Positions 633 to 26,572 of a stretch of 64,000 nt of DNA are shown here, in pieces (the first letter of the stretch is position 1; every line of letters begins with the position of its first letter). The translations under genes and the position numbers were made by a program. The DNA is from Prauserella aidingensis (lineage in GTDB: Bacteria > Actinomycetota > Actinomycetes > Mycobacteriales > Pseudonocardiaceae), in contig NZ_JAMTCN010000018.1 in the NCBI RefSeq assembly GCF_024171865.1, forward strand, positions 1 through 64,000, in the 5' to 3' direction. Below the pieces are notes generated by a model. The model was not told the origin of the DNA, searched no databases, and saw only the letters and a list, made by a program, of their open reading frames with translations.

Positions 633-2387
633 TCAGTCCGGTGAACCGGAGGACGACGCCCTTGCCGAGGTCTGCGGCGGCTTCTGCTTCCGCCGCACGG
701 TGTGGACGACGAACATCGTCACGCCGAGTGCCACGAGCGCACCCGCGGACCCGGTGACGGCGACGGCGAACGGTGTCCAGTTGGGGATGTTCGCGGGAGG
801 CAGGTCGTCGGGCAGCGGCTGCTGCTGGATCTTCTCGACGCCCATCTCCTCGGGCACGTCCGCGGTCAGCGCGGCGACGGGGTCGATGACGCCCTCGCCG
901 ATGTACTGGTCGTGACCGTCGGGGGTGGCCGGGTGGTGCGCGGTGTACTTGATGCGATCCGTGACCTGCGTCGCCGTGAGGTTCGGGTACATCTGCCGCA
1001 CCAGGACGGCCAGGCCCGAGACGTACGGTGCCGCGAAGCTCGTGCCCTCGATCGGGGCCGCGTTGCCGTTGGGGTCGATCGTCTGGTTGACGATGCGATC
1101 GGAGTTCTCCGCCGGGTCCAGCGAAATGATCTTCGTGCCGGGCGCGGCGACGCCGACCCACGGGCCGTTCATGCTGAACGGCGCGGTGCCCTCTTCGCCG
1201 ATCGCCGCCACCGACAGCACGTGGTCGGAGAACACCGGCGGCGAGACGATCGAGTTGAGCTTGGACAGGTCCGAGTCGGTGTTCTGCTGGCAGTTCTCGC
1301 CGACGTTGCCCGCCGCGGTCACGACGACGACGTCCTTGACCTCGTGCGCGTATTTGACGGCGGCCTGCAGCTTCTTGTTCTCGGCGTCGATGGTCGTCGA
1401 GAAGGGCTGGCAGTTGTTGATCGACACGTTCATGACGCTGCCGGGAGCCTCGTCGGCGGCCCTGATGATCGCGGCGGCGAGCGTGGCGAGCGTGCCCGCG
1501 CCCTCCTCGCTGTCGGCCTGCCGCTGCGACGTGCCCGTGGCCGAGGACTCGCCGGTGCCGGCGTCGCCACCGCCGTCGCCGCCTGCGTCGCCGTCACCTC
1601 CGGGACCGCCGCCGTCGCCACCGGCCCCGCCGCCGTCACCGCCACCGGGGCCACCGCCGTCGCCACCGTTCTGGCCACCGCCGTCGCCGCCGTTCTGGCC
1701 GCCGCCCGGGTTCTGCGGCTGCGCGGGTTCGTCGCTCTTCTCGTAGTACTGGCTGGACTGGCGGATCGCGTTGATCCGCACGTGCGGTGCGACGCCCTGG
1801 AAGCCGATGTCGGGCGGGGTATTCGCGCCGATGATGCCCGCGACCTCGGTGCCGTGGCCGTCGCAGTCGCGGACGCCCGGTCCGCCCTCCTCCTTGACGT
1901 ACTCGCCGATGCCGTGGACGCGGCTGTTTCCGTCCGGCCCCTGCATGTACGGGTGGCCGTCCTCGACACCGGTGTCGATCACGGTGACGGTCTGGCCCGC
2001 ACCCGGCTGTTTGCCCTCGGCGGCCAGGATGCGGTGGGCCTCGTCGAGCCGCAGGTACAGCTGTCCCCACGGGGCCTGCCGGAGACGGTCTGCCTCCTCG
2101 AGCTCGGCCGCCTTCACGCACTCGGTGTGGAGCTCGTAGTTCTCCTTGGGCCCGTCCATCTTCAGCTGGCCGATGGGTGGCAGGCCGGTGTCGGGTGGCG
2201 GTGTCCAGGCATCCGCCTGGGCCGCCGCGGGCAGCGACGGGACGAGCGCCGTCGTGGCGCCGATGGCGGCGGTGAGCAGTACCGCGGACATCCGGCGTGC
2301 CGGTCCCGTCCGGCGGGCACCGGCGCGGGGAGCGGCGCCGAACCGGCCGGCAGCTCGCGAACCGGCGTGTGGACCGACCGAACGCAC
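633..2387 (-). CDS. mycP: Type VII secretion mycosin (subtilisin-like serine protease)
   Basis: Membrane-anchored subtilase of the ESX secretion machine; mycosins stabilise the complex and cleave substrates outside the cytoplasmic membrane. The 584-residue product has a signal-like hydrophobic stretch (about 34-56), catalytic Asp138 (VIDTGV), His178 (GHGTEVAG), oxyanion Asn361 (AAGN) and Ser450 (GTSFAAP), then a C-terminal transmembrane helix (about 539-562) with a basic cytoplasmic tail. The GTG start at 2387 has AAGGGGG six bases upstream. Residues 228-278 are an almost pure Gly/Asp/Asn low-complexity insertion between His and Ser. The neighbours eccD and eccC and the link to rplM indicate the ESX-4 class (mycP4). 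Confidence 0.93.
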   Translation of the reverse strand: MRSVGPHAGSRAAGRFGAAPRAGARRTGPARRMSAVLLTAAIGATTALVPSLPAAAQADAWTPPPDTGLPPIGQLKMDGPKENYELHTECVKAAELEEADRLRQAPWGQLYLRLDEAHRILAAEGKQPGAGQTVTVIDTGVEDGHPYMQGPDGNSRVHGIGEYVKEEGGPGVRDCDGHGTEVAGIIGANTPPDIGFQGVAPHVRINAIRQSSQYYEKSDEPAQPQNPGGGQNGGDGGGQNGGDGGGPGGGDGGGAGGDGGGPGGDGDAGGDGGGDAGTGESSATGTSQRQADSEEGAGTLATLAAAIIRAADEAPGSVMNVSINNCQPFSTTIDAENKKLQAAVKYAHEVKDVVVVTAAGNVGENCQQNTDSDLSKLNSIVSPPVFSDHVLSVAAIGEEGTAPFSMNGPWVGVAAPGTKIISLDPAENSDRIVNQTIDPNGNAAPIEGTSFAAPYVSGLAVLVRQMYPNLTATQVTDRIKYTAHHPATPDGHDQYIGEGVIDPVAALTADVPEEMGVEKIQQQPLPDDLPPANIPNWTPFAVAVTGSAGALVALGVTMFVVHTVRRKQKPPQTSARASSSGSPD

Positions 2388-8213: not shown

Positions 8214-8251
8214 GTCACCGGTCGCCTCTGACGTCGGAGGCGACCGGTGAC
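8214..8251 (+). promoter_or_regulatory. Perfect 15-bp inverted repeat covering the RBS and start of the next gene
   Basis: Left arm gtcaccggtcgcctc (8214-8228) and right arm gaggcgaccggtgac (8237-8251) pair perfectly around an 8-nt loop. The right arm contains the Shine-Dalgarno bases GGAGG (8236-8240) and the GTG start (8247-8249) of the Hsp70-like gene. In RNA the hairpin would bury the ribosome-binding site. It could alternatively terminate or attenuate eccC transcription, but no U-run follows. Confidence 0.6.
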
Positions 8252-10743: not shown

Positions 10744-11061
10744 ATGGCTGGCGGTTTTGCAGGGACACCGGAGCAGTTCCAGAAGGCGTTCCAGGACGTG
10801 TCGGAGACCAGGACCCAGATGGACTCCAACATGCAGAAGCTTCGCTCGAACATCGAGGCCACCTCGGCCGGTTGGCAGGGCGAGGCTGCCGGCGCGTTCC
10901 AGAACGTGATGGCCGCGTTCGACGAGAAGAACATGAAGCTGAACCAGGCGCTGCAGGACATCGCCGACCTGCTCCAGCAGTCGGGTCACAAGTACCAGCA
11001 GGCTGAGGAGGAGCAGAACTCCGCCATCAGCAACATCGGCAACGTCCTCGGCGGCCTCTGA
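10744..11061 (+). CDS. esxU: WXG100 secreted protein, CFP-10-like (EsxU position)
   Basis: Small secreted helical-hairpin protein of the ESX-4 system (105 residues). It has the WxG turn W44-Q-G46 between two amphipathic helices and the T7SS export motif YxxxE (Y84-QQA-E88) after helix 2, as expected of the CFP-10-like partner that EccC binds. It should form a heterodimer with the next gene product. The ATG is preceded by GAAGGGGG. Its place between the Hsp70-like gene and the second WXG100 gene matches esxU of M. tuberculosis; the symbol is assigned on position. Confidence 0.9.
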   Translation: MAGGFAGTPEQFQKAFQDVSETRTQMDSNMQKLRSNIEATSAGWQGEAAGAFQNVMAAFDEKNMKLNQALQDIADLLQQSGHKYQQAEEEQNSAISNIGNVLGGL

Positions 11062-15058: not shown

Positions 15059-15364
15059 ATGGCCGGTGGACACAACGTAAACCCGCAGAAGCTGGCTGCT
15101 GCTGGGCGTGCCTATGCCCAGGACGGTGGGCAACTGAAGGAGGTCGGCGGAAAGCTGGAGACCGACGTCGGGGAGGCGCAGGTCGGCAAGGCCTGGTCGG
15201 ATACCGCGAAACCGTATGCCGAGGCGATCAAGAAGTACCGCGATGCTGTGACCAAGTACGGCGAACAGGCCGCTGACCTGGGCGACAACATGAAGCAAGC
15301 CGCCAAGGCGTACGAGGACGGCGAGACCGTGAACGCGGAGACCATCGCCTCGAAGGGGGTCTGA
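15059..15364 (+). CDS. Cassette A gene 1: small EspC-like type VII secretion target
   Basis: A 101-residue helical protein resembling the WXG100/EspC superfamily (PF10824-like): N-terminal HNVNPQKLAAAGRAYAQ, a central KAWSDTAKPYAEAIKKY turn and helix, and a C-terminal Y85-EDG-E89 fitting the T7SS export motif YxxxE. The ATG at 15059 is chosen because GGGGGAGGA lies just upstream. It is two bases from the start of the very large gene 2 and is probably its secretion partner, since T7SS substrates usually leave as helical pairs. Its paralogue is at 19355. The family assignment is by pattern only. Confidence 0.7.
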   Translation: MAGGHNVNPQKLAAAGRAYAQDGGQLKEVGGKLETDVGEAQVGKAWSDTAKPYAEAIKKYRDAVTKYGEQAADLGDNMKQAAKAYEDGETVNAETIASKGV

Positions 15365-15366
15365 CG

Positions 15367-18300
15367 ATGGATGACAAGACCTCTGCTGCTCTCTCCGGGG
15401 TGCTCGGCCACGAAGCCCGTGCCGAAGCGGCGCAAAAGGCGGCCAAGTCGATGTTCACCGATGCAGAGCTGAAAGAGATGAAGACTCTGCTCGATGACCC
15501 GAATGTTTCGTCCGAGCATCGCGGGCAGATGCTGATGGCGCTGTCCAATGCGGGCATGGTCAGCCATCAGGAGATCGACAAGTATTCCAACAAGTACGGG
15601 TACGACGCGGAAGACATCAAGGAGGGTGGAGAGGCTCCGCTCGAGAATCTGGTCAATGCGCAGCGGTCTTTGCGCAGGGCGCAACGTGAAGCGCATCAGG
15701 GCAAAATTTCGGATGCGAAGGACAGCCTGCAGGACCTCAAGTCGTACCGGTCTTCGGACCAGATCATCGACAAGGCCAAGCTGATCGTCAAACTCTTCAG
15801 CGAGTTCTACCCGAAGTACACCGAAGTAAAATCTCTCGGCTACAACGCTGATTCCGGCGATCCGGGCAAGCGTGAGATGCCGCGAGCCGAGATCAACGAC
15901 CCGAACTCGGGGCAGGGCAAAGCGGGCGCGACGGCGAAGTACTCGGCGGACGGGCACGAACCGGACGATATTCGGGCAGGCCTGGACGAGTTCCGCGGCA
16001 TCGAGTTCCACTGCTTCTGGCAGGACTCCAATGCCTTCTCGGACACGCACGAGAAGGTCGGTGAGATCAAGGAGTCACTGAACGAGGCTTGGCGGGATGG
16101 AACCGCCGATTGGACCGGCGACGCCAAGGGTGCGGCCGACCAGCGAAACAGTGCCATTGACAAGAGCGCCAGCGACCTCTCGGAGGCGCTTAACACTTCT
16201 GCTGACAGTGTGATGGCCGGCATCGACGCGGTCCGGGAGTGTGTGGCGCAGTACGTCGAGGTCGTACTCGAGATGTACGGGGACGGCAGAATTTCGAGTC
16301 TTGTCCCGTCCGACATCGACACGCTCATCGCAGTGGTCCAGCAGTTTCCTTCTGGGATCAGTCGCCTCGAGGAAATGAAGGACACGAATGTCTTTCAAGA
16401 TATCGCTGGCGGTTTCATGGAGCTCCAGTCGTTCGGGATGCACAGCGGCGGTGTGCCTCGGGGGAAGTCGTCCTTGTTTGATTTTCAGGACTACAAGTTC
16501 GCTGAAATCATAAACAGCGACAACATCAATCAGGAAATTGAGCGTGGTACGCAGGCTCTGCAGGATGCCGAAAATCAGTTGAAGGCTTTTCTGGGTGCCT
16601 ACGAGCAGAAGGCGAAGCAGTTTCACAGTCTTGGGCAGGAGTACGTCGGGGGTATTCAGACCAACTACTCTGAAATGATTAACGCCCTGAACAAGAACCT
16701 GGGGCACGTATTCGGTGACCAGGCGGGCAAGGGCGGTGACAAACCTGCTGTTCCCGCCGGTCAGCAGACGGCGACGCAGACCGCCAATCCTGTCCAGGGT
16801 GGCGGGCCGCCGACGGGTGGTGGACCGCAGCAACCGGGTGGTTCACCTGTCGGCTCGCCGGCCGTGCCTCCGCAGGCTTCGGTCGACCCGGCCGCCGCCG
16901 GTGAGCAGGCGCAGGGAGAAGCCGGTCAGGGTGGGAACGGCCAGCCGAAACCGGGCGACGTGGGCGAGGGGAAGAACCCCGTCACGGGCGGCAAGCTCGA
17001 AACCGACCCTGAGACCGGCGAGCCGTACCCGATCGACCCGGAGACCGGCGAGGCCGTCAAGGACGCCACCGAGCGCGACACACTGACCGTCGAACAGGGC
17101 GACAAGAAGCTCGAACTCGCCGAACCCAACGCCGACGGTGAGATGGCGATCTCCGTCGACGACGGCAACGGGCAGCTCAAGGACTACAAGCTCGACTTCG
17201 GCAACGGTGAGGACGCTTCCGGAGGTGCCCAATCGGGTGGTCCGACGGAGGGTGGCCCCGCCCAGGCCGCTGGTCAGAACCAAGGCCCCGGGGGAGAGGG
17301 CCAGGGCCCGGGCGCAGGCCAGGAACAGAACCCCGGCGAGCAGGACAGGCAGGATTTCGGACCGCAGGGTTCCGGTGACGGGGCCGACGGCGGGCAGGGC
17401 GCCGGCCAGGGCGAGAAGGTCTACACGCCGGACGAGGACGGCAAGATCCGCATCCAGGACGGCGACACCGAGATCGTCGCCGAACAGCCCGACGGACCCG
17501 ACGGCCCGACCACGGTGACCGTCGACGACGGCAAGGGCGAACCCACCACCTACACCCTCGGAGAAGAGCAGAGCGAACCCTCCGCCGCGGGTGGCGGTGG
17601 CATGCGGCCCGGGGGTGGCGGCGCCGAGTTCGCGGGCCGCGGCATGACCGCCGAGCCGGCGGACGTGGCTGGTCGGGCCGACGCCGCCGATGGCGGGGTT
17701 GCGCAAGCCGCTCAGGACGGTGGTCCACAGGCTGCGTCCGACGTGGATGCCGCCGATGCGGGATCGGTCACGGGCGACCTCGGTGCCGCAGGCGGCGGTA
17801 CGCCCGCAGAACCGAGTGGCGACGCGATGCAGGCCGCGGCGTCCGCATCGGCCGCAGGTGGCGCCCCGTCGATGCCCGACGACATGGGTTCCTCCGGCGG
17901 TGGCGCTCCCGAATCCGGTGGGGGAACGCCGGCCGCGGAGCCGTCCCCGGCCGGCCGGCCGGGTGGAGACCAGGCGCCCGCCGCCGACACAGGCAACAGT
18001 GGTGGTGCCGACGACTCCACCTCGCCCGCATCCAGCCTCGGCTCGTCCCTGGGTGACGACGCGCTCGGTGGTGGTTCCGGTGAGGCCGGCGGTGGCAGCC
18101 TCGGGGACGCTGGCATGGGTGACAGTGCCGATGGTGGCGCTGCGGCCGACTCCGGCGACGGTGACAACGGCGGCCCCGGAGGTTCCGGCGACCGCGGTGG
18201 CGGCTCCGGTGCGGCCGGCAGCGGAATGATGGGCGGAGGCATGGGCGGCGCCGGCGGAGGCGGCGGTGGCGGCGACGAGGAACGGCAGAGCCAGTTCGTC

Positions 18301-18402
18301 CTCAACGCCGTCAGCGACCTCTTCGGCGAGGCCGTGGCCGGCAACCACATCACGGGCACGATCGGCGAGGGTGTCGAGCCCGCCGTGTCGTTCAGCCGGT
18401 GA
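15367..18402 (+). CDS. Cassette A gene 2: large WxG-domain, glycine-rich putative T7SS substrate
   Basis: A 1011-residue protein of unknown function. Residues 1-450 are helical with a DDPNVSSEHRGQ region near the N-terminus and a WXG-like turn at W249-T-G251. About 460-570 is a Pro/Gly/Gln-rich linker. Two beta-type repeats follow (about 571-612 and 684-733), sharing LTVEQGDKK-like openings and VDDGxG cores. A very Gly/Ala-rich stretch then leads to a conserved tail (969-1011: GDEERQSQF ... ITGTIGEG). No signal peptide or transmembrane helix is present, as expected of a T7SS substrate. The N-terminal half has visibly lower GC and relaxed codon use compared with its C-terminus and neighbours. 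Paralogue at 19681. Confidence 0.7.
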   Translation: MDDKTSAALSGVLGHEARAEAAQKAAKSMFTDAELKEMKTLLDDPNVSSEHRGQMLMALSNAGMVSHQEIDKYSNKYGYDAEDIKEGGEAPLENLVNAQRSLRRAQREAHQGKISDAKDSLQDLKSYRSSDQIIDKAKLIVKLFSEFYPKYTEVKSLGYNADSGDPGKREMPRAEINDPNSGQGKAGATAKYSADGHEPDDIRAGLDEFRGIEFHCFWQDSNAFSDTHEKVGEIKESLNEAWRDGTADWTGDAKGAADQRNSAIDKSASDLSEALNTSADSVMAGIDAVRECVAQYVEVVLEMYGDGRISSLVPSDIDTLIAVVQQFPSGISRLEEMKDTNVFQDIAGGFMELQSFGMHSGGVPRGKSSLFDFQDYKFAEIINSDNINQEIERGTQALQDAENQLKAFLGAYEQKAKQFHSLGQEYVGGIQTNYSEMINALNKNLGHVFGDQAGKGGDKPAVPAGQQTATQTANPVQGGGPPTGGGPQQPGGSPVGSPAVPPQASVDPAAAGEQAQGEAGQGGNGQPKPGDVGEGKNPVTGGKLETDPETGEPYPIDPETGEAVKDATERDTLTVEQGDKKLELAEPNADGEMAISVDDGNGQLKDYKLDFGNGEDASGGAQSGGPTEGGPAQAAGQNQGPGGEGQGPGAGQEQNPGEQDRQDFGPQGSGDGADGGQGAGQGEKVYTPDEDGKIRIQDGDTEIVAEQPDGPDGPTTVTVDDGKGEPTTYTLGEEQSEPSAAGGGGMRPGGGGAEFAGRGMTAEPADVAGRADAADGGVAQAAQDGGPQAASDVDAADAGSVTGDLGAAGGGTPAEPSGDAMQAAASASAAGGAPSMPDDMGSSGGGAPESGGGTPAAEPSPAGRPGGDQAPAADTGNSGGADDSTSPASSLGSSLGDDALGGGSGEAGGGSLGDAGMGDSADGGAAADSGDGDNGGPGGSGDRGGGSGAAGSGMMGGGMGGAGGGGGGGDEERQSQFVLNAVSDLFGEAVAGNHITGTIGEGVEPAVSFSR

Positions 18403-18481
18403 CGGCACACATCGAGGCGGCTGGTGACAGTCCCGGCCGGTGCGCGTTCAGATGCCGAGTCGTGAGCAGAGGGGAAGCAGC

Positions 18482-18961
18482 ATGGTCGAGAACGCTGATT
18501 CGGAGCTGGCGCAGCGGCTCGCCGAGAATCGGGCCCGGTTACGTGCCGCGACCGCCGAGATCAACGAATGGGCCCAGCAGGCCGAACGAGAGCGTGAAGA
18601 GGCGGCAGAAGCACGTCGCCAGGCTGCGGAGCAGTTGAACAAGGAACTCGACGAACAGGTCGCCGCCAACAAGGAAGCCCGCGAGGATCCGAACTCGAAG
18701 AACGAGTGGTTGCAGCGGCGCGACGACGGTGGTGGCCGCACGATGGACTTCGGCCCCACCGGGGACGGCTTCGAGGACGACCAGGCCGGCGCGGCCCCGG
18801 CACAGCCCGCCGCCCCGTCACCGCAGGTGCCCGTCGCGGAGCCTGCACCGGCGCAGCAACCGACGCAGCAACCGACGCAGCCGTCCAGGCCTGCCGCGCG
18901 GCACCGGCGCGCGGACGAGGACGACGACGAGGACTTCGCCAACCGCGACTGGTTCGTCTAG
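18482..18961 (+). CDS. Cassette A gene 3: coiled-coil protein with acidic, aromatic C-terminal tail
   Basis: A 159-residue soluble protein. Residues about 5-68 form a highly charged coiled coil (ENRARLRAATAEINEW ... REREEAAEARRQAAEQ), then come a Gly/Asp segment, a Pro/Gln/Ala-rich linker, and the tail DEDDDEDFANRDWFV. The ATG at 18482 has AGAGGGGAAG upstream. The family is unrecognised, but the domain order matches the third gene of cassette B, which ends DDHEDDDFSHETYLK, so the acidic-DF-aromatic tail looks like a conserved binding peptide. It may act as chaperone or adaptor for the large substrate; this is inference. Confidence 0.65.
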   Translation: MVENADSELAQRLAENRARLRAATAEINEWAQQAEREREEAAEARRQAAEQLNKELDEQVAANKEAREDPNSKNEWLQRRDDGGGRTMDFGPTGDGFEDDQAGAAPAQPAAPSPQVPVAEPAPAQQPTQQPTQPSRPAARHRRADEDDDEDFANRDWFV

Positions 18962-19083
18962 TCCGGGACTCCCGCGACACTGCGGAGTTCGCCGAGCCGG
19001 AGTTCGTCGAGCCGGGGTTCGCCGAGCCGGAGTTCGGCGAGCTTCTGGGCGCCGGACACACGTCCGTACCGGAGACGGCACAT

Positions 19084-19128
19084 CGACGGCGGCCGCCCGG
19101 GCCTTCACGGTCCGGACGGCCGCCGTCG
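19084..19128 (+). terminator. Terminator-like hairpin between cassettes A and B
   Basis: CGACGGCGGCCGCCCGG (19084-19100) pairs with CCGGACGGCCGCCGTCG (19112-19128) with one mismatch. It lies 123 bp beyond cassette A gene 3 and suggests that the cassettes are separate transcripts. Upstream, 18985-19041 carries three to four short direct repeats of the type GAGCCGGAGTTCG. No gene was recognised in the 393-bp gap. Confidence 0.6.
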
Positions 19129-19260
19129 TCGTTTCGCCCGGAGTCGTGGCAGGCCGGTGGTGCGCGGCCTGCTCGCCGTCGTCCCCGGCTGACCAGCGCG
19201 GACACCTCGCGCCGCCCGGGTGGCCGTGGTCGTTGCGCGTTCCTCGGATCCGCCCAACCC

Positions 19261-19292
19261 GGTACATTTCGTGTGCAGATGCGACGGCACCG
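19261..19292 (+). promoter_or_regulatory. Candidate promoter/operator motif, copy B (cassette B)
   Basis: GGTACATTTC, then TGTGCA, then ACGGCACCG, starting 94 bp before the cassette B start. The blocks and spacing are nearly the same as at 14953-14985. TACATT (19263-19268) is the -10-like hexamer. Confidence 0.5.
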
Positions 19293-19354
19293 ATCCGGTA
19301 CTCCTCGCGTCTCAGTCGTCAGACGACCACGGACGATGCCAGGGGGTGCGAGGA

Positions 19355-19684
19355 GTGAGCGGGGTCAACGCGCCGCAGGGGTACACGGCCGACCAGGGTT
19401 CGATGTCGAACCAGGCCACACGCATCGGCGATGCCGCGACGAGTGCGCAGGAGGAGGTCGTCGACGTCGGCACGTCGAACGTCGGCGAGGGCGGCTTCGG
19501 CAAGGCGCACACCGAGTTCAGCGGCGACTACACCGCGGGCATCCAGACGATCGGCGAGGCGGCGCAGGCCATGTGCAGCTCGTTGACGTCGTTCGCGAGC
19601 ACCGTCGGCGCGGCGGGCCGGCAGTACGGCGCTGCGGAGGAATCGCAGGCCCAGGCGGCCACGCGGGCGGGGAGTGGACTGTGA
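19355..19684 (+). CDS. Cassette B gene 1: small EspC-like type VII secretion target
   Basis: A 109-residue helical protein parallel to the gene at 15059. N-terminal QGYTADQGSMSNQATRIGDAA is followed by a glycine turn (NVGEGGFG), a second helix, and Y91-GAA-E95, a YxxxE export motif near the C-terminus. The GTG start at 19355 directly follows GCGAGGA. The stop overlaps the start of gene 2 by four bases (GTGA), so the pair is translationally coupled, as is typical for secreted partners. Similarity to the WXG100/EspC family is by layout, not strong sequence match. Confidence 0.68.
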   Translation: MSGVNAPQGYTADQGSMSNQATRIGDAATSAQEEVVDVGTSNVGEGGFGKAHTEFSGDYTAGIQTIGEAAQAMCSSLTSFASTVGAAGRQYGAAEESQAQAATRAGSGL

Positions 19685-22320
19685 GCGACTACACGTGGGA
19701 CGAGACGAAGGAGATCCTCGACGACCCGTACGTCTCGGCCGACACCAAGCAGGCCGTGCTCTACAACTACGCCATGGCCGGTGACGGTAACGAGGCCGCC
19801 GAGGCGTACTACGAGAAGTACAACGTCGCTCCGCACCCCTATCCCGGTCCGTACATGGGCAGTCGAGGGAACTACGAGGGCTACGACGGCAGGAAGGACC
19901 CGTACGAGAAGGCGCGCGAGGAGTCCGAGGCGGGAAGCTATCGCGGCAGCCAGCTCGAGTCGAAGCTCGACGAGAACGCCGACGAGCTCGACCAGGCGCA
20001 GCCGCCCGCGTCGTCGTCCTCGTCGGCGGGCGGGGTCACCACCTCCGACGAGCTGCTCGAATTGGCCAAGGACGCGCTCGACACGTTCCACACGTTCCTG
20101 CCGATCGACGCGCAGGTCCCGGCCGACTCCAAGCACATCGACGGGCCGTTGGACTACGCCACGGACATCCGCGAGCGCTACTGGGAGCAGAGCGGCATCG
20201 ACTTCCGGAAGTTCCTCGACGATGCCGAGCAGCTGCGCAAGGCACACGGCACGCTGAAGGAACTTCGGACGAGCACACAGCAGGATCTGAACTCGCTCTA
20301 CCGCGACTGGACCGGCGACGCCGCCAACGCGTCGTACCAGCAGTACAGCGAGGACATCGAGCCGAACGCGGCCGACCTGATCGAGCATCTCGACGGCGCG
20401 TCCCAGGTGATCGAGGCCGCCGTGCAGACGGTGTTCGACACGGTCAAGCACAAGGCCGAACAGGTCATGCAGCTGTACACGCCGACCGTCGGCCAGGCCA
20501 CGCCGGAGATCGCGAAGCAGGTCATGACGCTCGCGAACGGCGATTTCTCCACCCAGGACGAGGTGCTCGAGGTGGCCGCGTGGGTCGACTCGGTGTGCGG
20601 GTCCAACCTGGAAGCCACGATCCGCGCCGACAACTGCGGCCTCAACGACGAGAACAAGGAACTCGTCAAGACCGAGTGCAAGACGTGGATCCGCGAATCG
20701 TGGAACGTCGACCTGTACGACAACCTGTACGCCTCGTTCACGTCGCTGTGCGACTCGACGAAGGAAGCCGTCGACCAGGCCTACAGCACCCTGAACGAGT
20801 ACCTCGGCGAGTACGAGAACGGCTTCCCGGCCCAGCAGGGAGGCACACCGGGAGGTACGCAGCCGCCGGGCGTCGACACCGGGGTCGGCACTCCGGGCAC
20901 CGGCACTCCGGGCACCGGTACGCCGGGCGCAGGTACGCCGGGGGCGGGCACTCCCGGCGCGGGCGCAGGGACGCCGAGCGTGGCGACGCCGGGTGCGGGC
21001 AGCCCGGGCGGTGGCGCTCCCGCGGGCGGCGGCCCCGGTGGCGGGAGCCCCGGCGCGCCGACGACGCCGAGCACCCCGGCGCCCGACGTCCCGAAACCCG
21101 ACGTTCCAAAGCCCGAAGCGCCGAAGGTCCCGGAGTTCGAGACGCCCGGCCCCGGAACGGGCGGGCCCGGCACCGGTGGCGGCGACACCGACGGCGACGG
21201 TGAGCCGGACCTGCCGGAGTTCGAGACGCCGGACCTGAAGAAGCCCGACCTGGGCCTCGACGACGACGGCGACGGAAAGCCCGACAACGTGCTCGACACA
21301 CCGGGAGACGATCGCGACAGGCTCACGGTCGAGGAGGGCGACAACACGCTCGAGATCACCGAGCCCGACGACGACGGGAAGATGGAGATCTCCGTCGACG
21401 ACGGCACGGGCCTGCCCAAGGACTACCGACTCGACTTCGGCAACGACGACGCAGCAGGCGACGACGCAGCAGGCAACGGCGCAGCAGGTGGCGGGAACGC
21501 GAGCGGCGACACCGGCGACCGGCGCGAAGTCCGCGCGGAGGACGCCGCCGAGGCGTACGACGGCGGTTCCGATGGCGGGACCGACGGCGGCAAGGTCCAC
21601 ACGCCCGGCCCGGACGGCACGATCCGCATCGAGGACGGCGACCTGACGATCGTCGCCGAACAGCCCGAGGGGCCGGACGGTCCGACGTTGGTCACCGTCG
21701 ACGACGGCACGGGCGAGCCGACCACGTACACGCTCGACGGAGTCGACAGCGGTGACAGTGGTGACAGCGGTGCCGACAGTGGACTCCGGACGCTGCCGAA
21801 GGAGTTCGAGCCGCCGTCGTCGGGCTCGCTCGACCTCGACGACGGCCCCGCCGGCGGTGACGACCCCGCGGGCGGTGGCGGCGCTGCGGTGGGTGGCGGT
21901 GTCACAGGCGGTAGCGGCTCCGTCGGGGAGGGTGCCGGTTCGATCGGAGCCGGTGCCGGCTCGGTCGGTGGCGGTGGCGGCGGCGGGTTCTCGGCCGACG
22001 CCGAGGCACCGCAGCCGCTGAACGAGGGCTCGCGCACGAGCGCCACCACCGGCGCTCTGCCCACGAGTGGCGCACCCGCGGCCGTCGCGGGCGGTGGTGA
22101 CGCCGGTGGCGGTGCGGCCGGTGGTCGCGGCGGAATGATGGGCGGCGGCATGATGGGTGCGCCGATGGGCGCCGGCGGCGGCGCCGGTGGGCAAGGCGGC
22201 GACCAGGAACGGACGTCGAGCTACCGCATCGACGGTGGCCTGTTCGACGGTTCCGAGTCCCCGCAGGCCATCACCGGCACGATCGGCGACGACCCGCCCG
22301 CCGTGCGCTACGACAAATGA
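19681..22320 (+). CDS. Cassette B gene 2: large WxG-domain, glycine-rich putative T7SS substrate
   Basis: An 879-residue paralogue of the gene at 15367. The N-terminus has LDDPYVSADTKQ (compare DDPNVSSEHRGQ in cassette A), a WXG turn at W210-T-G212, helical segments to about 390, and a Gly/Thr/Pro tandem linker (GTPGTGTPGAG type). Two beta repeats with VDDGTG cores begin near 546 and 638. A Gly/Met-rich stretch and the conserved tail (about 839-879: GDQERTSSYR ... ITGTIGDD) end the protein. The GTG at 19681 overlaps the upstream stop; the longer in-frame extension lacks normal codon use and would overlap gene 1. No signal peptide. Export by ESX is inferred. Confidence 0.72.
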   Translation: MSDYTWDETKEILDDPYVSADTKQAVLYNYAMAGDGNEAAEAYYEKYNVAPHPYPGPYMGSRGNYEGYDGRKDPYEKAREESEAGSYRGSQLESKLDENADELDQAQPPASSSSSAGGVTTSDELLELAKDALDTFHTFLPIDAQVPADSKHIDGPLDYATDIRERYWEQSGIDFRKFLDDAEQLRKAHGTLKELRTSTQQDLNSLYRDWTGDAANASYQQYSEDIEPNAADLIEHLDGASQVIEAAVQTVFDTVKHKAEQVMQLYTPTVGQATPEIAKQVMTLANGDFSTQDEVLEVAAWVDSVCGSNLEATIRADNCGLNDENKELVKTECKTWIRESWNVDLYDNLYASFTSLCDSTKEAVDQAYSTLNEYLGEYENGFPAQQGGTPGGTQPPGVDTGVGTPGTGTPGTGTPGAGTPGAGTPGAGAGTPSVATPGAGSPGGGAPAGGGPGGGSPGAPTTPSTPAPDVPKPDVPKPEAPKVPEFETPGPGTGGPGTGGGDTDGDGEPDLPEFETPDLKKPDLGLDDDGDGKPDNVLDTPGDDRDRLTVEEGDNTLEITEPDDDGKMEISVDDGTGLPKDYRLDFGNDDAAGDDAAGNGAAGGGNASGDTGDRREVRAEDAAEAYDGGSDGGTDGGKVHTPGPDGTIRIEDGDLTIVAEQPEGPDGPTLVTVDDGTGEPTTYTLDGVDSGDSGDSGADSGLRTLPKEFEPPSSGSLDLDDGPAGGDDPAGGGGAAVGGGVTGGSGSVGEGAGSIGAGAGSVGGGGGGGFSADAEAPQPLNEGSRTSATTGALPTSGAPAAVAGGGDAGGGAAGGRGGMMGGGMMGAPMGAGGGAGGQGGDQERTSSYRIDGGLFDGSESPQAITGTIGDDPPAVRYDK

Positions 22321-22458
22321 GCACGCCACGACAAGTGACCGCCCCACGGCAGGTGAACCCCTGCTCCGGCGAACGCGCCAAGGCGGTGGGAAGGGCGGCG
22401 GTGGAAACGGCGGCGGTGGAAACGGCGGCAGGCGAGGACAGGACGGCGGGAGAGGACC

Positions 22459-22866
22459 ATGGCTGAGGGCAGGGCGGCGGCCGCGCTGGCCCGGTTCGAC
22501 CGGATCAACCGGGAACTGGCGGACCGGCGGGCGTTGCGGGAACGCAAGGCCGCCGAGGCGAAACAGCGGGCGTCGGACAACCTCGCGCGGCGCGGTGAGG
22601 TCGCCGAGCGGTCGGCGAAACACCTCATCGAGCTGGCGAAACGGCAGCGCGCGAACAGCGGCTTCGACACCGGCCGCTCGCGTGAGGAGGAAGAGCACGT
22701 GCTGCGGTTCGGTGCCGAGGACGAGACGGCCGCAGAACCGCCCACCCGGCACATGCTGCCGCCCCAGCCGCCCGCATCACCTGCACCGCCGCCACCTCCG
22801 CGCGGGCCGGCTCCCGCCGACGACCACGAAGACGACGACTTCTCCCACGAGACCTACCTGAAATGA
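22459..22866 (+). CDS. Cassette B gene 3: coiled-coil protein with acidic C-terminal tail
   Basis: A 135-residue protein: a charged helix (about 5-72, RFDRINRELADRRALRERKA), an acidic patch, a proline-rich linker (PPQPPASPAPPPPPRG) and the tail DDHEDDDFSHETYLK. It mirrors cassette A gene 3 in order and tail, though overall sequence is diverged. The ATG at 22459 follows GGGAGAGG. The 138-bp gap before it contains a 15-nt GGCGGCGGTGGAAAC direct repeat. Its stop overlaps the ACP start (ATGA), tying the T7SS cassette to the ketosynthase genes. Confidence 0.62.
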   Translation: MAEGRAAAALARFDRINRELADRRALRERKAAEAKQRASDNLARRGEVAERSAKHLIELAKRQRANSGFDTGRSREEEEHVLRFGAEDETAAEPPTRHMLPPQPPASPAPPPPPRGPAPADDHEDDDFSHETYLK

Positions 22867-23192
22867 GCGCCGGCGACATGAACACCGAACGGAACGCCGA
22901 AGCCGCCGCCGCAACGACCGCGACCGTGCCCGCGGCGGTGGCAGGCAGGGCCCGGGAGATCGAGGCATTGGTGTGCCGGGTGCTGGAGGTCGAGTCGGGG
23001 ACGGTGGGCCCTGAGGATCGGTTCGTCGACGATCTGGGTGCGGATTCGATGAAGTTGATCGAGTTGTTGTCGCATTTGGAGATCGAGTTCGACGTGGAGA
23101 TCGACGAGGACGAGTTGGAGCGCCTGGTGCACCTGCAGGGCGTGTACGACGTGCTCGGCGACGTCCTGGACGCCGACTCCCTGGACGCCTAG
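22863..23192 (+). CDS. Acyl carrier protein
   Basis: A 109-residue carrier protein with an Ala-rich N-terminal extension (about 30 residues) and a four-helix ACP core. The phosphopantetheine attachment site is S62 in DDLGADSMKLIELL, followed by the acidic recognition helix EIEFDVEIDEDELERL. It would carry an acyl or polyketide chain for the ketosynthase pair that follows. Its ATG overlaps the stop of cassette B gene 3 and its own stop is two bases before the ketosynthase start. The position outside any fatty-acid operon suggests a dedicated pathway rather than the housekeeping AcpM. Confidence 0.88.
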   Translation: MSAGDMNTERNAEAAAATTATVPAAVAGRAREIEALVCRVLEVESGTVGPEDRFVDDLGADSMKLIELLSHLEIEFDVEIDEDELERLVHLQGVYDVLGDVLDADSLDA

Positions 23193-23194
23193 CC

Positions 23195-24433
23195 GTGGCG
23201 GGTTCGCGTGCGCACGCGGGCAGGCGCCGCGTGGCCGTGACGGGCGTCGGCGTCGTGTCCTCGATCGGCACGGGCGCCGACGCCTACGCGCGCGCATTGC
23301 GGCAGGGCCGCAGCGGGGCTCGTCCGATCGAGGCGTTCGACACCACCGGGTTCGCGCACGCCACGGGCTGCGAGGTCGTCGGGTTCGAACCGGAGCGCTG
23401 GCTGCGGCGCGTGCCCGTGGAGGAGGCGGGCAGAGCGGCGCAGTTCGCGATCGCCTCGGCCGGGATGGCGCTCGACGACGCCGGGATCACCGAGGACGAC
23501 CTGCGGGACCGGCGCGGCCTCGTGTCCATCGGCACCACCGACGGCGGCTCCGACGACGGTGAACGTCTCGCCGCCTCGTTCGTCCACGACGGCCCCGCGG
23601 CGATCGACCCGGCCGCCGCACGCCGCGTGCCCGCGAGTCGTCTCGCCACCGGTGTGGCCCGCGACCTCGGACTCGCCGATGTCGAGGTGTCGACCGTCGC
23701 CACGGCCTGCGCCGCGGGCAACTACGCGATCGGCGGCGGCGTCGACGCACTCCGCACCGGCGAGGTCGACTACGCCCTCTGCGGCGGCGCCGACGCCCTG
23801 TGCCGCATGACGTTCACCGGCTTCTACCGCCTCGGCGCCGTGGATCCCGACCGCTGCAGGCCGTTCGACGTCGACCGCCGCGGCATCCACACCGGCGAAG
23901 GTGGCGCGGTGCTGCTGCTCGAACCCCTCGACGACGCCGTGGCGCGCGGCGCGCGGGTCTACGCCGAGGTGCTCGGTTACGGCCTCAACTGCGACGCCCA
24001 CCACCAGGTCGCCCCGCACGGGGAGAGCGTCGCCCGCTGCATGGAACTCGCACTCGACGACGCCGATGTAGCACCCGCCGACGTCGACCTGATCTCCGCT
24101 CACGGCACCGGCACGAAGGCCAACGACGTCACCGAGTGCGGCGCGATCCACGGCGTGTTCGGGCCCGCGGGCGAGGTGCCGCCGGTGGTGTCGGTCAAGT
24201 CGATGCTCGGCCACACCATGGGTGCCGCCAGTGCGCTCGCCGCCGCGGCGTGCGCACTCGGCATCGACGGCGGATTCGTCCCGCCGACGATCAACCACAC
24301 CGAGACCGATCCGGAGTGCGCCGTCGACTGCGTCCCCAACACCGCCGTGGACGCCGACCTGCGGGTGGTGCAGAACAACGCGCTCGCCTTCGGGGGCAAC
24401 AACGCCGTCGTCGTGCTGGGCAGGCCCGCATGA
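23195..24433 (+). CDS. Beta-ketoacyl-ACP synthase (KS-alpha-like, catalytically complete)
   Basis: Condensing enzyme of the FabF/type II polyketide class (412 residues). The full triad is visible: Cys172 (VATACAAGN), His303 (SAHGTGTKAND) and His340 (KSMLGHTMGAAS), plus the C-terminal NNALAFGGNNAV loop. It should decarboxylate and condense malonyl-type extenders on the adjacent ACP. The gene overlaps the next one by four bases (ATGA). The KS/KS-like pairing resembles KS-alpha/chain-length-factor, but no ketoreductase, cyclase or acyltransferase is nearby. The product is unknown. Confidence 0.9.
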   Translation: MAGSRAHAGRRRVAVTGVGVVSSIGTGADAYARALRQGRSGARPIEAFDTTGFAHATGCEVVGFEPERWLRRVPVEEAGRAAQFAIASAGMALDDAGITEDDLRDRRGLVSIGTTDGGSDDGERLAASFVHDGPAAIDPAAARRVPASRLATGVARDLGLADVEVSTVATACAAGNYAIGGGVDALRTGEVDYALCGGADALCRMTFTGFYRLGAVDPDRCRPFDVDRRGIHTGEGGAVLLLEPLDDAVARGARVYAEVLGYGLNCDAHHQVAPHGESVARCMELALDDADVAPADVDLISAHGTGTKANDVTECGAIHGVFGPAGEVPPVVSVKSMLGHTMGAASALAAAACALGIDGGFVPPTINHTETDPECAVDCVPNTAVDADLRVVQNNALAFGGNNAVVVLGRPA

Positions 24434-25545
24434 CCGGCGCGGTGATCACGGCGTGGTCGGCGATCTCGGCGTGCGGCGTCGGCGCCGACTCCCATCGCGC
24501 GGTGTACGGCGACCCTGCCCGCAGGCCCCGGCTCACCCCGGTGGGCGATCCGGTGCCCGGCGAAGCCCACGTGGCCGCGGACTTCGACGTCACCGAGGCC
24601 CTCGGCCCGAAGGGCACCTCCTCGATGGACCGGTGCAGCGCCCTCGCCGTCGCCACCGCGGCCGACCTCCTCGCCGCCGGGCAGCGCCCCCAAGGGCACA
24701 TTGGTTGCATTCAACGCAACCAAAGTGCCTCTGGGGGCATCGCACCACCGAGCGGGATCGGCGTGGTGCTGGGGACGACGTCGGGGAGCGCGCAGACCCA
24801 GCTCGACTTCACGCGCGAATCGCTGACCCGCGCCAAGCCGTACCGCGTCAATCCGGCGCTGATGCCGTTCGCGCTGATGAACAGTGCCGCGGCCCGGACG
24901 GCGATGTGGCACGGGCTCACCGGTCCGAACACGACGATCGCGGGTGGCCGCATGTCCGGCCTGTCCACGCTGCGCTACGGGGCGCGGCTGCTCGCCACCG
25001 GCCGTGCCGACGCGATGCTGTGCGGAGCCGTCGAGGAGTACGGACCCGCCCGGCAATGGCTCGCCGACCAGCGCACCCCGGACGCGCTGCACCCGCTCGG
25101 CGAGGGCGGAGCCGTCCTACGCCTCGAACCGGCGGCCGCGCACGGCGAGACCACGGCCACCTTCGGCGAGACCACGGGCGCGGGTACTCCGGCACTGGCC
25201 GACGTGCTGGGCATCGACACCCGGGTGGTCGTCGACGACGATCCGGCGGCGGCGCTCGAGGCCTGCATCCGCCGCACCCTCGACCGTGCCGGTGCCGCCG
25301 CGAGCGACGTGCGCACCGTCGCCGTGTCCGCCCCGCCCGGGCCGCTCGCCGACGCCGAACGCCGCGCCGTCGCCCACACCGCCGGTCACGCCGACGTGCG
25401 CGACCCCGGCGACATCGTCGGCGACACCGGGGCGGCGACCGGCCCGTTCCAGGTCACGCTGGTGCTCGAGCGCCGCGGACTCGCACTGATGACCGCCGCG
25501 GACGAGGACGGCACGGTCGGCTGCGGCCTGCTCCGCGTGCACTGA
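24430..25545 (+). CDS. Ketosynthase-like protein lacking the catalytic triad (chain-length-factor-like)
   Basis: A 371-residue thiolase-fold protein coupled to the preceding ketosynthase. Alignment of NTTIAGGRMSGLS with STVATACAAGN puts Arg174 at the active cysteine; the HGTGT histidine region reads SAPPGPL and the second histidine region GDTGAATG, so all three catalytic residues are missing. This is expected of a chain-length factor or KS-beta partner rather than an enzyme. Residues about 86-103 are encoded by an inserted 53-bp palindrome. It might be non-functional, but the frame is intact and codon use outside the insert is normal. Confidence 0.8.
   Translation: MTGAVITAWSAISACGVGADSHRAVYGDPARRPRLTPVGDPVPGEAHVAADFDVTEALGPKGTSSMDRCSALAVATAADLLAAGQRPQGHIGCIQRNQSASGGIAPPSGIGVVLGTTSGSAQTQLDFTRESLTRAKPYRVNPALMPFALMNSAAARTAMWHGLTGPNTTIAGGRMSGLSTLRYGARLLATGRADAMLCGAVEEYGPARQWLADQRTPDALHPLGEGGAVLRLEPAAAHGETTATFGETTGAGTPALADVLGIDTRVVVDDDPAAALEACIRRTLDRAGAAASDVRTVAVSAPPGPLADAERRAVAHTAGHADVRDPGDIVGDTGAATGPFQVTLVLERRGLALMTAADEDGTVGCGLLRVH
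24686..24738. repeat. 53-bp palindrome copy 1, inside a coding sequence
   Basis: 23-nt arms (24686-24708 and 24716-24738) begin and end GCCCCC/GGGGGC and flank a 7-nt loop, ATTCAAC; 20 of 23 positions pair. It lies in frame within the ketosynthase-like gene and adds about 18 residues (PQGHIGCIQRNQSASGG). Confidence 0.9.
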
Positions 25546-26519: not shown

Positions 26520-26572
26520 GCCCCCAGGGGCACTTTGGTCGCATTCAATGCAACCAAAGTGCCCTTGGGGGC
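26520..26572. repeat. 53-bp palindrome copy 2, in the divergent hydrolase/glmS promoter region
   Basis: Arms 26520-26542 and 26550-26572 pair at 21 of 23 positions around the loop ATTCAAT. The element sits between two divergent genes, so here it cannot simply be a transcription terminator. Confidence 0.9.

What the first reader, a model, noticed from the sequence alone, without database searches (positions are those of the whole stretch)
15059..22866. Two tandem paralogous three-gene cassettes that look like a T7SS substrate system
Seen: two sets in the same order, each with (1) an EspC-like protein of 101-109 aa ending in YxxxE, (2) a protein of 879-1011 aa with a mid-protein WTG turn, two VDDGxG beta repeats, Gly-rich stretches and a conserved ITGTIG tail, and (3) a coiled-coil protein ending in an acidic DF-aromatic tail. 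Known: T7SS substrates are paired helical proteins with WxG and YxxxE, without signal peptides. Inferred: these are co-secreted pairs of the nearby ESX-4 system with a dedicated third factor. The coherent three-gene unit does not match any family I can name. M. tuberculosis, as I recall, has a gene of about 100 aa and a larger Ala/Pro-rich gene between glmM and the Rv3438 hydrolase, so a reduced version may exist there.
Basis: partly seen in the sequence, partly recalled or inferred. Interest (0 to 1): 0.82.

Follow-up and report, generated by a model that had tools for sequence, protein, structure and literature searches.

The report
Paired secretion-substrate cassettes beside ESX-4
Beside an ancient bacterial protein-export machine lie two old copies of a three-gene unit that looks like a pair of exported proteins plus a helper, and related bacteria keep the unit in the same place, which makes it a good candidate for further cargo of that machine.

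Summary
Confirmed: two tandem three-gene cassettes lie between glmM and glmS of a Prauserella genome, about 7 kb past eccC of an ESX-4 locus. Gene 1 is a WXG100/EspC-type hairpin with YxxxE. Gene 2 has a WxG domain of probably PPE-like fold, two beta units and a Gly-rich tail. Gene 3 is a coiled coil with an acidic-aromatic tail. In 100 glmM neighbourhoods, genes 1+2 occupy this interval in 20 of 20 genomes of the window's family, 16 of 20 of a second (inferred Mycobacteriaceae) and 0 of 60 others. Gene 3 follows 28 of 30 gene-2 copies in the window's family and seems lost where gene 2 is short. Best reading: an ESX-4-linked substrate pair with a dedicated chaperone, laid out like EspA/EspC/EspD and EspE/EspF/EspH of ESX-1 but with an unrelated third protein. 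The copies are old paralogues. Type B goes with an acyl-carrier module (ACP+KAS or P450-like+FAAL-type+ACP): in 10 of 11 genomes with B, 0 of 9 without. Pairing, export and chaperoning are inferred, not shown. New variant of a known kind.

The parts
633..2387 (-). mycosin protease (MycP)
   Evidence: TIGR03921 288.5 bits, cut-off 278.75; PF00082
2464..3858 (-). EccD
   Evidence: TIGR03920 298 bits; PF19053, PF08817
4175..8194 (+). EccC ATPase
   Evidence: TIGR03924 1040 bits and TIGR03925 857 bits
8247..10409 (+). Hsp70-like protein with a C-terminal Rv3446c-type T7SS domain, the ESX-4 accessory gene
   Evidence: PF00012; TIGR03931 64.7 bits, cut-off 47.6
10744..11061 (+). WXG100 protein 1 (EsxU/EsxT position)
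   Evidence: PF06013 61.6 bits
11122..11409 (+). WXG100 protein 2 (EsxU/EsxT position)
   Evidence: PF06013 67.6 bits
13418..14794 (+). glmM, the anchor gene of the survey
   Evidence: PF02878-80, PF00408
15059..15364 (+). gene 1A: WXG100/EspC-like hairpin with YxxxE, no WxG
   Evidence: PF06013 35.4 bits, cut-off 27.3; model of two long helices, pLDDT 75
15367..18402 (+). gene 2A: WxG helical domain, two beta units, Gly/Ala-rich tail ending ITGTIG plus about a dozen residues
   Evidence: TIGR03930 23.5 bits at residues 220-291, below cut-off; alignments A1, A4
18482..18961 (+). gene 3A: coiled coil, Pro-rich linker, acidic-aromatic tail
   Evidence: own HMM and alignment A3; no Pfam family over cut-off
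19355..19684 (+). gene 1B: EspC/WXG100-like hairpin with YxxxE
   Evidence: TIGR03930 16.1 bits, E 0.0099, below cut-off; aligned with the gene 1A family
19681..22320 (+). gene 2B: long WxG protein
   Evidence: PF06013 29.3 bits, cut-off 27.3, residues 174-253
20158..20835 (+). gene 2B residues 160-385: predicted PPE-like helical domain; WxG at residues 210-212
21319..21435 (+). gene 2B beta unit 1, four strands, residues 547-585
21619..21735 (+). gene 2B beta unit 2, four strands, residues 647-685
22459..22866 (+). gene 3B: coiled coil, Pro-rich linker, acidic-aromatic tail
22863..23192 (+). acyl carrier protein; start overlaps gene 3B stop (ATGA); GADS motif
   Evidence: PF00550 43.3 bits
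23195..24433 (+). ketosynthase (KAS) with the TACAAG, AHGTGT and KSMLGHT stretches that usually hold the catalytic Cys, His and Lys-His (roles recalled)
   Evidence: PF00109, PF02801
24430..25545 (+). second ketosynthase-like protein, apparently without the active-site Cys (by eye; chain-length-factor-like), holding an interspersed palindromic repeat
   Evidence: PF00109 47.7 bits
   Evidence: PF12740 47.4 bits

Best explanation
Each cassette encodes an ESX-4 substrate pair with its own cytosolic helper. Gene 1 (YxxxE hairpin, PE/EspC role) and gene 2 (WxG, PPE-like helical domain) form a four-helix heterodimer that carries the composite T7SS export signal. Gene 3 binds gene 2 in the cytosol, probably holding its beta/Gly-rich C-terminal half or helical tip until delivery to EccC, then stays behind. 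This is the job of EspD/EspH, EspK or EspG in other ESX systems. ESX-4 exports the pair, and gene 2 then works in or on the cell envelope through its two beta units and long disordered arm. Shown: gene order, conservation, domains, co-occurrence, linkage to ESX-4 and glmM. Inferred: pairing, export, chaperoning, final site. Not explained: what the exported beta/Gly part does.
For: Gene 1 lies directly upstream of gene 2 in 30 of 30 gene-2 copies of family f1 and 16 of 17 of family f8. Gene 3 follows in 28 of 30 f1 copies. Genes 1+2 go with an EccC within about 25 kb of glmM: 30 of 35 genomes with it, 6 of 45 without, Fisher p 4e-11, kinship not corrected (80 of the 100 surveyed genomes; nearness read by hand from a list that was cut at the weak end). 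WxG and YxxxD/E are split between partners, and gene 3 has neither as a conserved feature: WxG in 3 of 26 rows, YxxxD/E near the end in 4 of 26. PPE-like fold for gene 2 and WXG100/PE-like hairpin for gene 1. No hydrophobic segment: highest 19-residue mean hydropathy is 1.03 in the six proteins. In the same genome, C21:63815-67878 shows YbaB (acidic-aromatic tail), then a YxxxD hairpin, then a 1087-aa WxG protein, and C12 and C6 have like groups, so gene 3 fills a slot that YbaB fills elsewhere. EspD, EspH and EspK are reported chaperones of such substrates (PMC6107294 passages; PMC9811218 passages).
Confidence: 0.68

Rival explanations
1. The cassettes are envelope or growth genes tied to the glmM/glmS amino-sugar interval that borrowed a WXG100-type heterodimer fold but are not exported by ESX-4.
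For: Position after glmM is kept even where no EccC is listed nearby (G007, G021, G142, G148).
Against: WxG plus YxxxD/E split over a coupled gene pair is the T7SS substrate mark. 0 of 60 regions outside the two families have the pair although all 60 have glmM. EccC linkage is strong.
Confidence: 0.15
2. They are polymorphic antibacterial effectors (toxin plus partner plus immunity protein), with gene 3 as the immunity protein.
For: The layout resembles loci elsewhere in this genome, e.g. C21:63815-68147 with a small gene after the 1087-aa WxG protein. LXG/Lap toxins of T7SSb are built alike (PMC11217815 passages).
Against: The C-terminal part is conserved, not polymorphic: two beta units in 29 of 30 f1 copies and a loose terminal pattern in 29 of 30, with no toxin-family match for the window's proteins. 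Gene 3 is a conserved coiled coil.
Confidence: 0.09
3. Gene 3 is a third co-secreted subunit, or an EccC/Hsp70-docking adaptor, rather than a chaperone.
For: Short acidic-aromatic C-terminus after a Pro-rich linker, an arrangement suited to docking. EspD is both stabilising and secreted (secretion recalled, no call).
Against: Gene 3 has no conserved T7SS mark of its own: WxG in 3 of 26 rows, YxxxD/E near the end in 4 of 26.
Confidence: 0.2

Closest known systems
EspA/EspC/EspD and EspE/EspF/EspH of ESX-1
   Same: Small YxxxD/E partner, larger WxG protein, dedicated third protein that stabilises the pair (PMC6107294 passages)
   Different: Linked to ESX-4, not ESX-1. Gene 2 does not match Pfam EspA_EspE and gene 3 is not YbaB-like. 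The paper calls EspH-like proteins unique to ESX-1.
PE/PPE pairs with EspG
   Same: Predicted helical domain of gene 2 aligns with PPE41/PPE15 over about 160 of 173 residues; gene 1 model aligns with PE25 and WXG100 proteins
   Different: PPE is not among the 25 families shown for 29 gene-2 rows and the own-genome PPE search has no place in gene 2. The plasmid model has pe, ppe and espG joining a plasmid copy of ESX-4 later (PMC4791881 passages).
EspB with EspK
   Same: Helical PE/PPE-type domain, dedicated non-EspG chaperone (PMC9811218 passages); long low-complexity C-terminal part (recalled for EspB)
   Different: EspB is one chain holding both motifs; here the motifs are split over two genes.
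LXG toxins with Lap partners (T7SSb)
   Same: Long helical protein with small hairpin partner(s) (PMC11217815 passages)
   Different: One weak LXG match in 29 rows, E 0.044; no polymorphic toxin end.
Rv3440c-Rv3439c of M. tuberculosis (Rv3439c = Ppr2)
   Same: Likely the reduced version: a gene of about 100 aa, then a WxG, Pro/Ala-rich gene after glmM (unnamed f8 genomes; Rv gene positions recalled). Ppr2 was found as a two-hybrid partner of the Rip1 PDZ domain (PMC6963305 passage).
   Different: The g15 forms of f8 have no beta units and no gene 3. The M. tuberculosis genes themselves were not examined.

Membership tests
ESX-4 locus | eccC, eccD, mycP, Rv3446c-type gene and a WXG100 pair beside rplM-rpsI-glmM | tested here: met
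   NCBIfam matches over cut-off; gene order
ESX-4 locus | eccB | not tested
   not looked for; it may lie outside the window
WXG100 superfamily (PF06013) | score over Pfam cut-off | tested here: met
   gene 1A 35.4 and gene 2B 29.3 bits against 27.3. Gene 2A and gene 1B reach only sub-cut-off TIGR03930 scores.
T7SS substrate pair | WxG in one partner, YxxxD/E in the other | tested here: met
   27 of 29 and 32 of 39 rows
T7SS substrate pair | adjacent co-oriented genes forming a heterodimer | tested here: inconclusive
   adjacency met; the heterodimer itself was not modelled
T7SS substrate pair | export depends on EccC | not testable with these tools
   needs an eccC deletion and secretome
EspC family (PF10824) | score over Pfam cut-off | tested here: inconclusive
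   27 of 39 gene-1 rows match at E 0.1 or better, best 1.4e-11; window gene 1A 19.4 bits against 23.5
EspA/EspE family (PF18879) | profile match of gene 2 | tested here: not met
   own-genome search lists no match at gene 2A or 2B up to E 1
PPE family (PF00823) | profile match of gene 2 | tested here: not met
   own-genome PPE search up to E 1 finds 13 places, none in gene 2A or 2B; not among the 25 of 29 families shown for 29 gene-2 rows
PPE family (PF00823) | PPE fold | tested here: inconclusive
YbaB-type T7SS chaperones (EspD/EspH/EspL) | YbaB domain in gene 3 | tested here: not met
   none of the 12 families matched by 26 rows at E 0.1 is YbaB; own-genome YbaB search has no place in the cassettes
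YbaB-type T7SS chaperones (EspD/EspH/EspL) | binds and stabilises the WxG partner | not testable with these tools
   needs pull-down and a gene-3 deletion
LXG toxins | LXG domain | tested here: not met
   1 of 29 rows, E 0.044

The most novel reading that the evidence does not exclude
Cassette B is an acylated or acyl-lipid-linked ESX-4 cargo. A dedicated acyl carrier protein, fed by KAS enzymes in some genera and by a P450-like/FAAL-type pair in others, makes a fatty chain that is placed on the gene-2B product, or exported with it, to anchor it in the envelope. On this reading the ancestral ESX-4 exports lipid-modified PPE-fold proteins, a link between type VII secretion and ACP chemistry that I know of in no T7SS.
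Probability: 0.12. Interest if true: 0.86.

Novelty: new variant of a known kind. Interest (0 to 1): 0.62.

Why it matters
ESX-4 is called the most ancestral ESX system (PMC11217815 passages), yet in the M. abscessus study whose passages I saw its tested output is EsxU/EsxT, and the authors say that identifying additional ESX-4 substrates will be essential (PMC11791044 passages). A conserved pair at a fixed place beside glmM gives named candidates in harmless actinomycetes and in mycobacteria-like genomes. If export is shown, PPE-type pairs with a dedicated chaperone may predate the ESX-3/ESX-5 PE/PPE expansion, which would have to be squared with the model in which pe, ppe and espG joined a plasmid copy of ESX-4 (PMC4791881 passages). 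The repeated pairing of one cassette type with an ACP module opens a second question that gene removals can answer.

Tried and rejected
Gene 1-gene 2 complex prediction: not run. The structure tool folds one chain, and judging by eye I saw no cassette in the loci it admits with the two genes in one frame. The PDB rows cover the helical part only, so nothing is claimed about the fold of the beta units. Solved-structure sequence searches gave no T7SS relative for gene 2A and only weak EsxB for gene 1A. PHROGs and PADLOC were not searched. Papers: Rv3439c/Rv3440c in 6 papers, listing only except one passage; ESX-4 with glmM and type VII secretion, 1, listing; ESX-4 with EsxU, EsxT and substrate, 20 listed, passages of two; ESX-4 with Amycolatopsis, none; type VII secretion with acyl-carrier terms, 15 of 23 listed, none by title about such a link. 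I found no paper on this cassette in these searches; subscription journals are mostly not held. PMC9401124 (passages) notes that M. marinum ESX-4 was reported not to secrete EsxT/EsxU, so ESX-4 may not be active in all mycobacteria. A toxin reading was set aside because the C-terminal part is conserved.

Weak points of my own counts: thresholds are mine, and the profiles were grown on the regions they then scored. Gene-2 hits in g15 genomes (1e-3 to 1e-12) overlap the level at which the EsxU/T-type WXG100 genes also hit my profile, so I rely on place plus a profile-profile match (97.2%, 189 columns; a single comparison of 13 sequences). Outside f1 and f8 the profile gave only weak hits off the counted place: eight on the minus strand in f15 (E 0.0012 to 0.45) and one in f4 (0.1); I did not count them. 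9 of the 100 regions are shorter than 20 kb because of contig ends, L049, L053, L094 and L106 under 9 kb. Gene 3 was not hit by the profile in any f8 genome; I assign it by eye in L038, L042 and, weakly, L043, the first two then being put into alignment A3. The phylum search scored at most 6 candidates per genome and missed G007, which has the pair. The tail pattern of gene 2 is loose and has no shuffled control. The gene-2 tree used the 41 of 54 rows longer than 240 residues. Family names behind handles f1 and f8 are inferred, f1 from named loci, f8 from gene content only. EccC nearness was read by hand, whose list was cut at its weak end.
Full report
WHAT IS THERE. The window is from a Prauserella: the nearest named loci are Prauserella, with P. 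isguenensis 86% identical over gene 2A. From left to right it holds mycP and eccD (minus strand), eccC, an Hsp70-like gene fused to the Rv3446c-type T7SS domain, two WXG100 genes, rplM, rpsI, glmM, cassette A, cassette B, an ACP gene, a KAS gene, a second KAS-like gene, a hydrolase on the minus strand, then glmS (rplM and rpsI by their place and translation, names recalled). This is an ESX-4 locus by its NCBIfam matches and by its place beside rplM-rpsI-glmM.

SURVEY. glmM was found in 154 of 160 genomes of the order, in 15 of 16 families. I took 100 of these 154 neighbourhoods: 20 of family f1 (the window's family, Pseudonocardiaceae by the named loci), 20 of f8 (Mycobacteriaceae by inference), 19 of f15 and 41 of eleven others; 9 were cut short by contig ends. 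With profiles built from the window's own proteins and grown on these regions, genes 1+2 lie downstream of glmM on the same strand in 20 of 20 f1 regions, 16 of 20 f8 regions and 0 of 60 others (E under 1e-3 for both genes; L044, L045, L047 and L053 of f8 fall out). Ten of the 20 f1 regions have two gene-2 copies. Where glmS was seen it lies beyond the cassettes. Families without the cassette have the same glmM and mostly glmS, so it is an insertion in a fixed interval. A phylum-wide search with the gene-2 profile found 8 of 296 genomes: the window's genome, six of f8 and one weak WXG100-level match; it missed at least one genome that has the pair.

LINK TO ESX-4. Of 80 of the 100 genomes searched with part of the window's EccC, 35 have an EccC within about 25 kb of glmM, read by hand from the list. 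The pair is present in 30 of these 35 and in 6 of the other 45 (Fisher p 4e-11, kinship not corrected). Two of the six (G097, G132) are f1 genomes whose EccC lies on another contig, which may be assembly breaks. The other four (G007, G021, G142, G148) are f8 genomes where the pair stayed at glmM with no EccC listed nearby. This cuts against a purely ESX-4-driven placement. ESX-like EccC genes also exist away from glmM in genomes without the cassette, so the cassette is not a general part of such systems.

REDUCED FORM. In genus g15 of f8, 13 of 14 genomes have the pair. There gene 2 is about 430-480 aa (L049 is cut by its contig), lacks the beta units, and mostly ends in a C-x-x-AA-x-x-LP type tail; no gene 3 was hit. 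A profile of 13 of these proteins aligns with the f1 family over 189 columns at 97.2%. Rv3439c has been reported as Ppr2, a two-hybrid partner of the Rip1 PDZ domain (PMC6963305, one passage). That suits an exported protein, but two-hybrid data alone cannot say so. In L038 and L042, also f8, gene 2 is 603 and 572 aa, a gene-3-like coiled coil ends in a KSWLV tail, and a DUF6802 gene sits just upstream of gene 1. Gene 3 thus tends to go with the longer gene 2.

TWO OLD PARALOGUES AND THE ACP MODULE. A tree of 41 gene-2 helical domains puts cassette A and cassette B of the window in separate well-supported groups: B in a set of 16 rows (100/98), A in a set of 6 (100/100). The tandem is therefore not a recent duplication. 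15 of the 16 B rows, from 14 of 15 loci, come from loci that also hold an ACP gene; L030 is the exception. In Prauserella and near kin the ACP follows gene 3B, in the window with a 4-base ATGA overlap, and KAS follows (not found in L015). In the g3 genus and in L024 a P450-like gene (minus strand), an AMP-binding gene that I call FAAL-type and an ACP directly precede gene 1B. Pfam was run on L023 and L024 only; the L024 P450 match is 22.3 bits, just under the 22.8 cut-off. By genome in f1: ACP module in 10 of 11 with a B cassette and 0 of 9 without (Fisher p 1e-4, kinship not corrected). Within two genera the two appear and vanish together: L017 lacks both while L018, L019 and the window have both (g1), and L024 has both while L021 and L022 lack both (g7). 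Different acyl-making enzymes with the same kind of carrier beside the same cassette type is why I keep the acylation reading open. No modification has been shown.

MECHANISM. Small YxxxD/E partner plus WxG protein plus dedicated helper is how EspC/EspA/EspD and EspF/EspE/EspH are described. EspH binds EspE and is needed for EspE/EspF secretion, and EspD stabilises EspA/EspC (PMC6107294, passages). EspK binds the helical tip of EspB and keeps it from oligomerising (PMC9811218, passages). In the window's own genome, other WxG proteins are encoded beside a YbaB gene with an acidic, mostly aromatic tail and a small hairpin gene: C21:63815-67878, and like groups on C12 and C6. Gene 3 holds that slot with an unrelated coiled coil but a similar kind of tail. 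I therefore read it as a chaperone/adaptor, at lower certainty than the substrate pair.

VERDICT. Nothing here shows export.

Noticed in passing
window 22863-25545: ACP, ketosynthase and a second ketosynthase-like gene apparently lacking the active-site Cys lie in line behind cassette B, a set like a minimal type II polyketide synthase.
   Followed up: partly
window 24697-24728 and 26531-26562: A palindromic repeat of about 32 bases occurs twice (second copy 3 mismatches), once inside the second ketosynthase-like gene; none in 100 shuffles.
   Followed up: partly
L023, L026-L029 between the two cassettes; L024, L025 between glmM and the cassette: P450-like gene (minus strand), FAAL-type AMP-binding gene and ACP sit directly before the B-type gene 1.
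   Followed up: partly
L038:13108-13458 and L042:14637-15002: DUF6802 genes (PF20615, 143 and 160 bits) lie just upstream of gene 1 in two f8 genomes, a possible fourth partner there.
   Followed up: partly
L160 (G000 C21:63815-68147): Elsewhere in the genome: YbaB gene, YxxxD hairpin, 1087-aa WxG protein, small following gene; looks like a T7SS effector locus.
   Followed up: partly
G021 C55:110457-111287 and C119:35599-36420: One f8 genome has two further gene-2 copies away from glmM.
   Followed up: no
window 8247-10409: The ESX-4 accessory gene is an Hsp70-like ATPase fused to the Rv3446c-type domain.
   Followed up: partly
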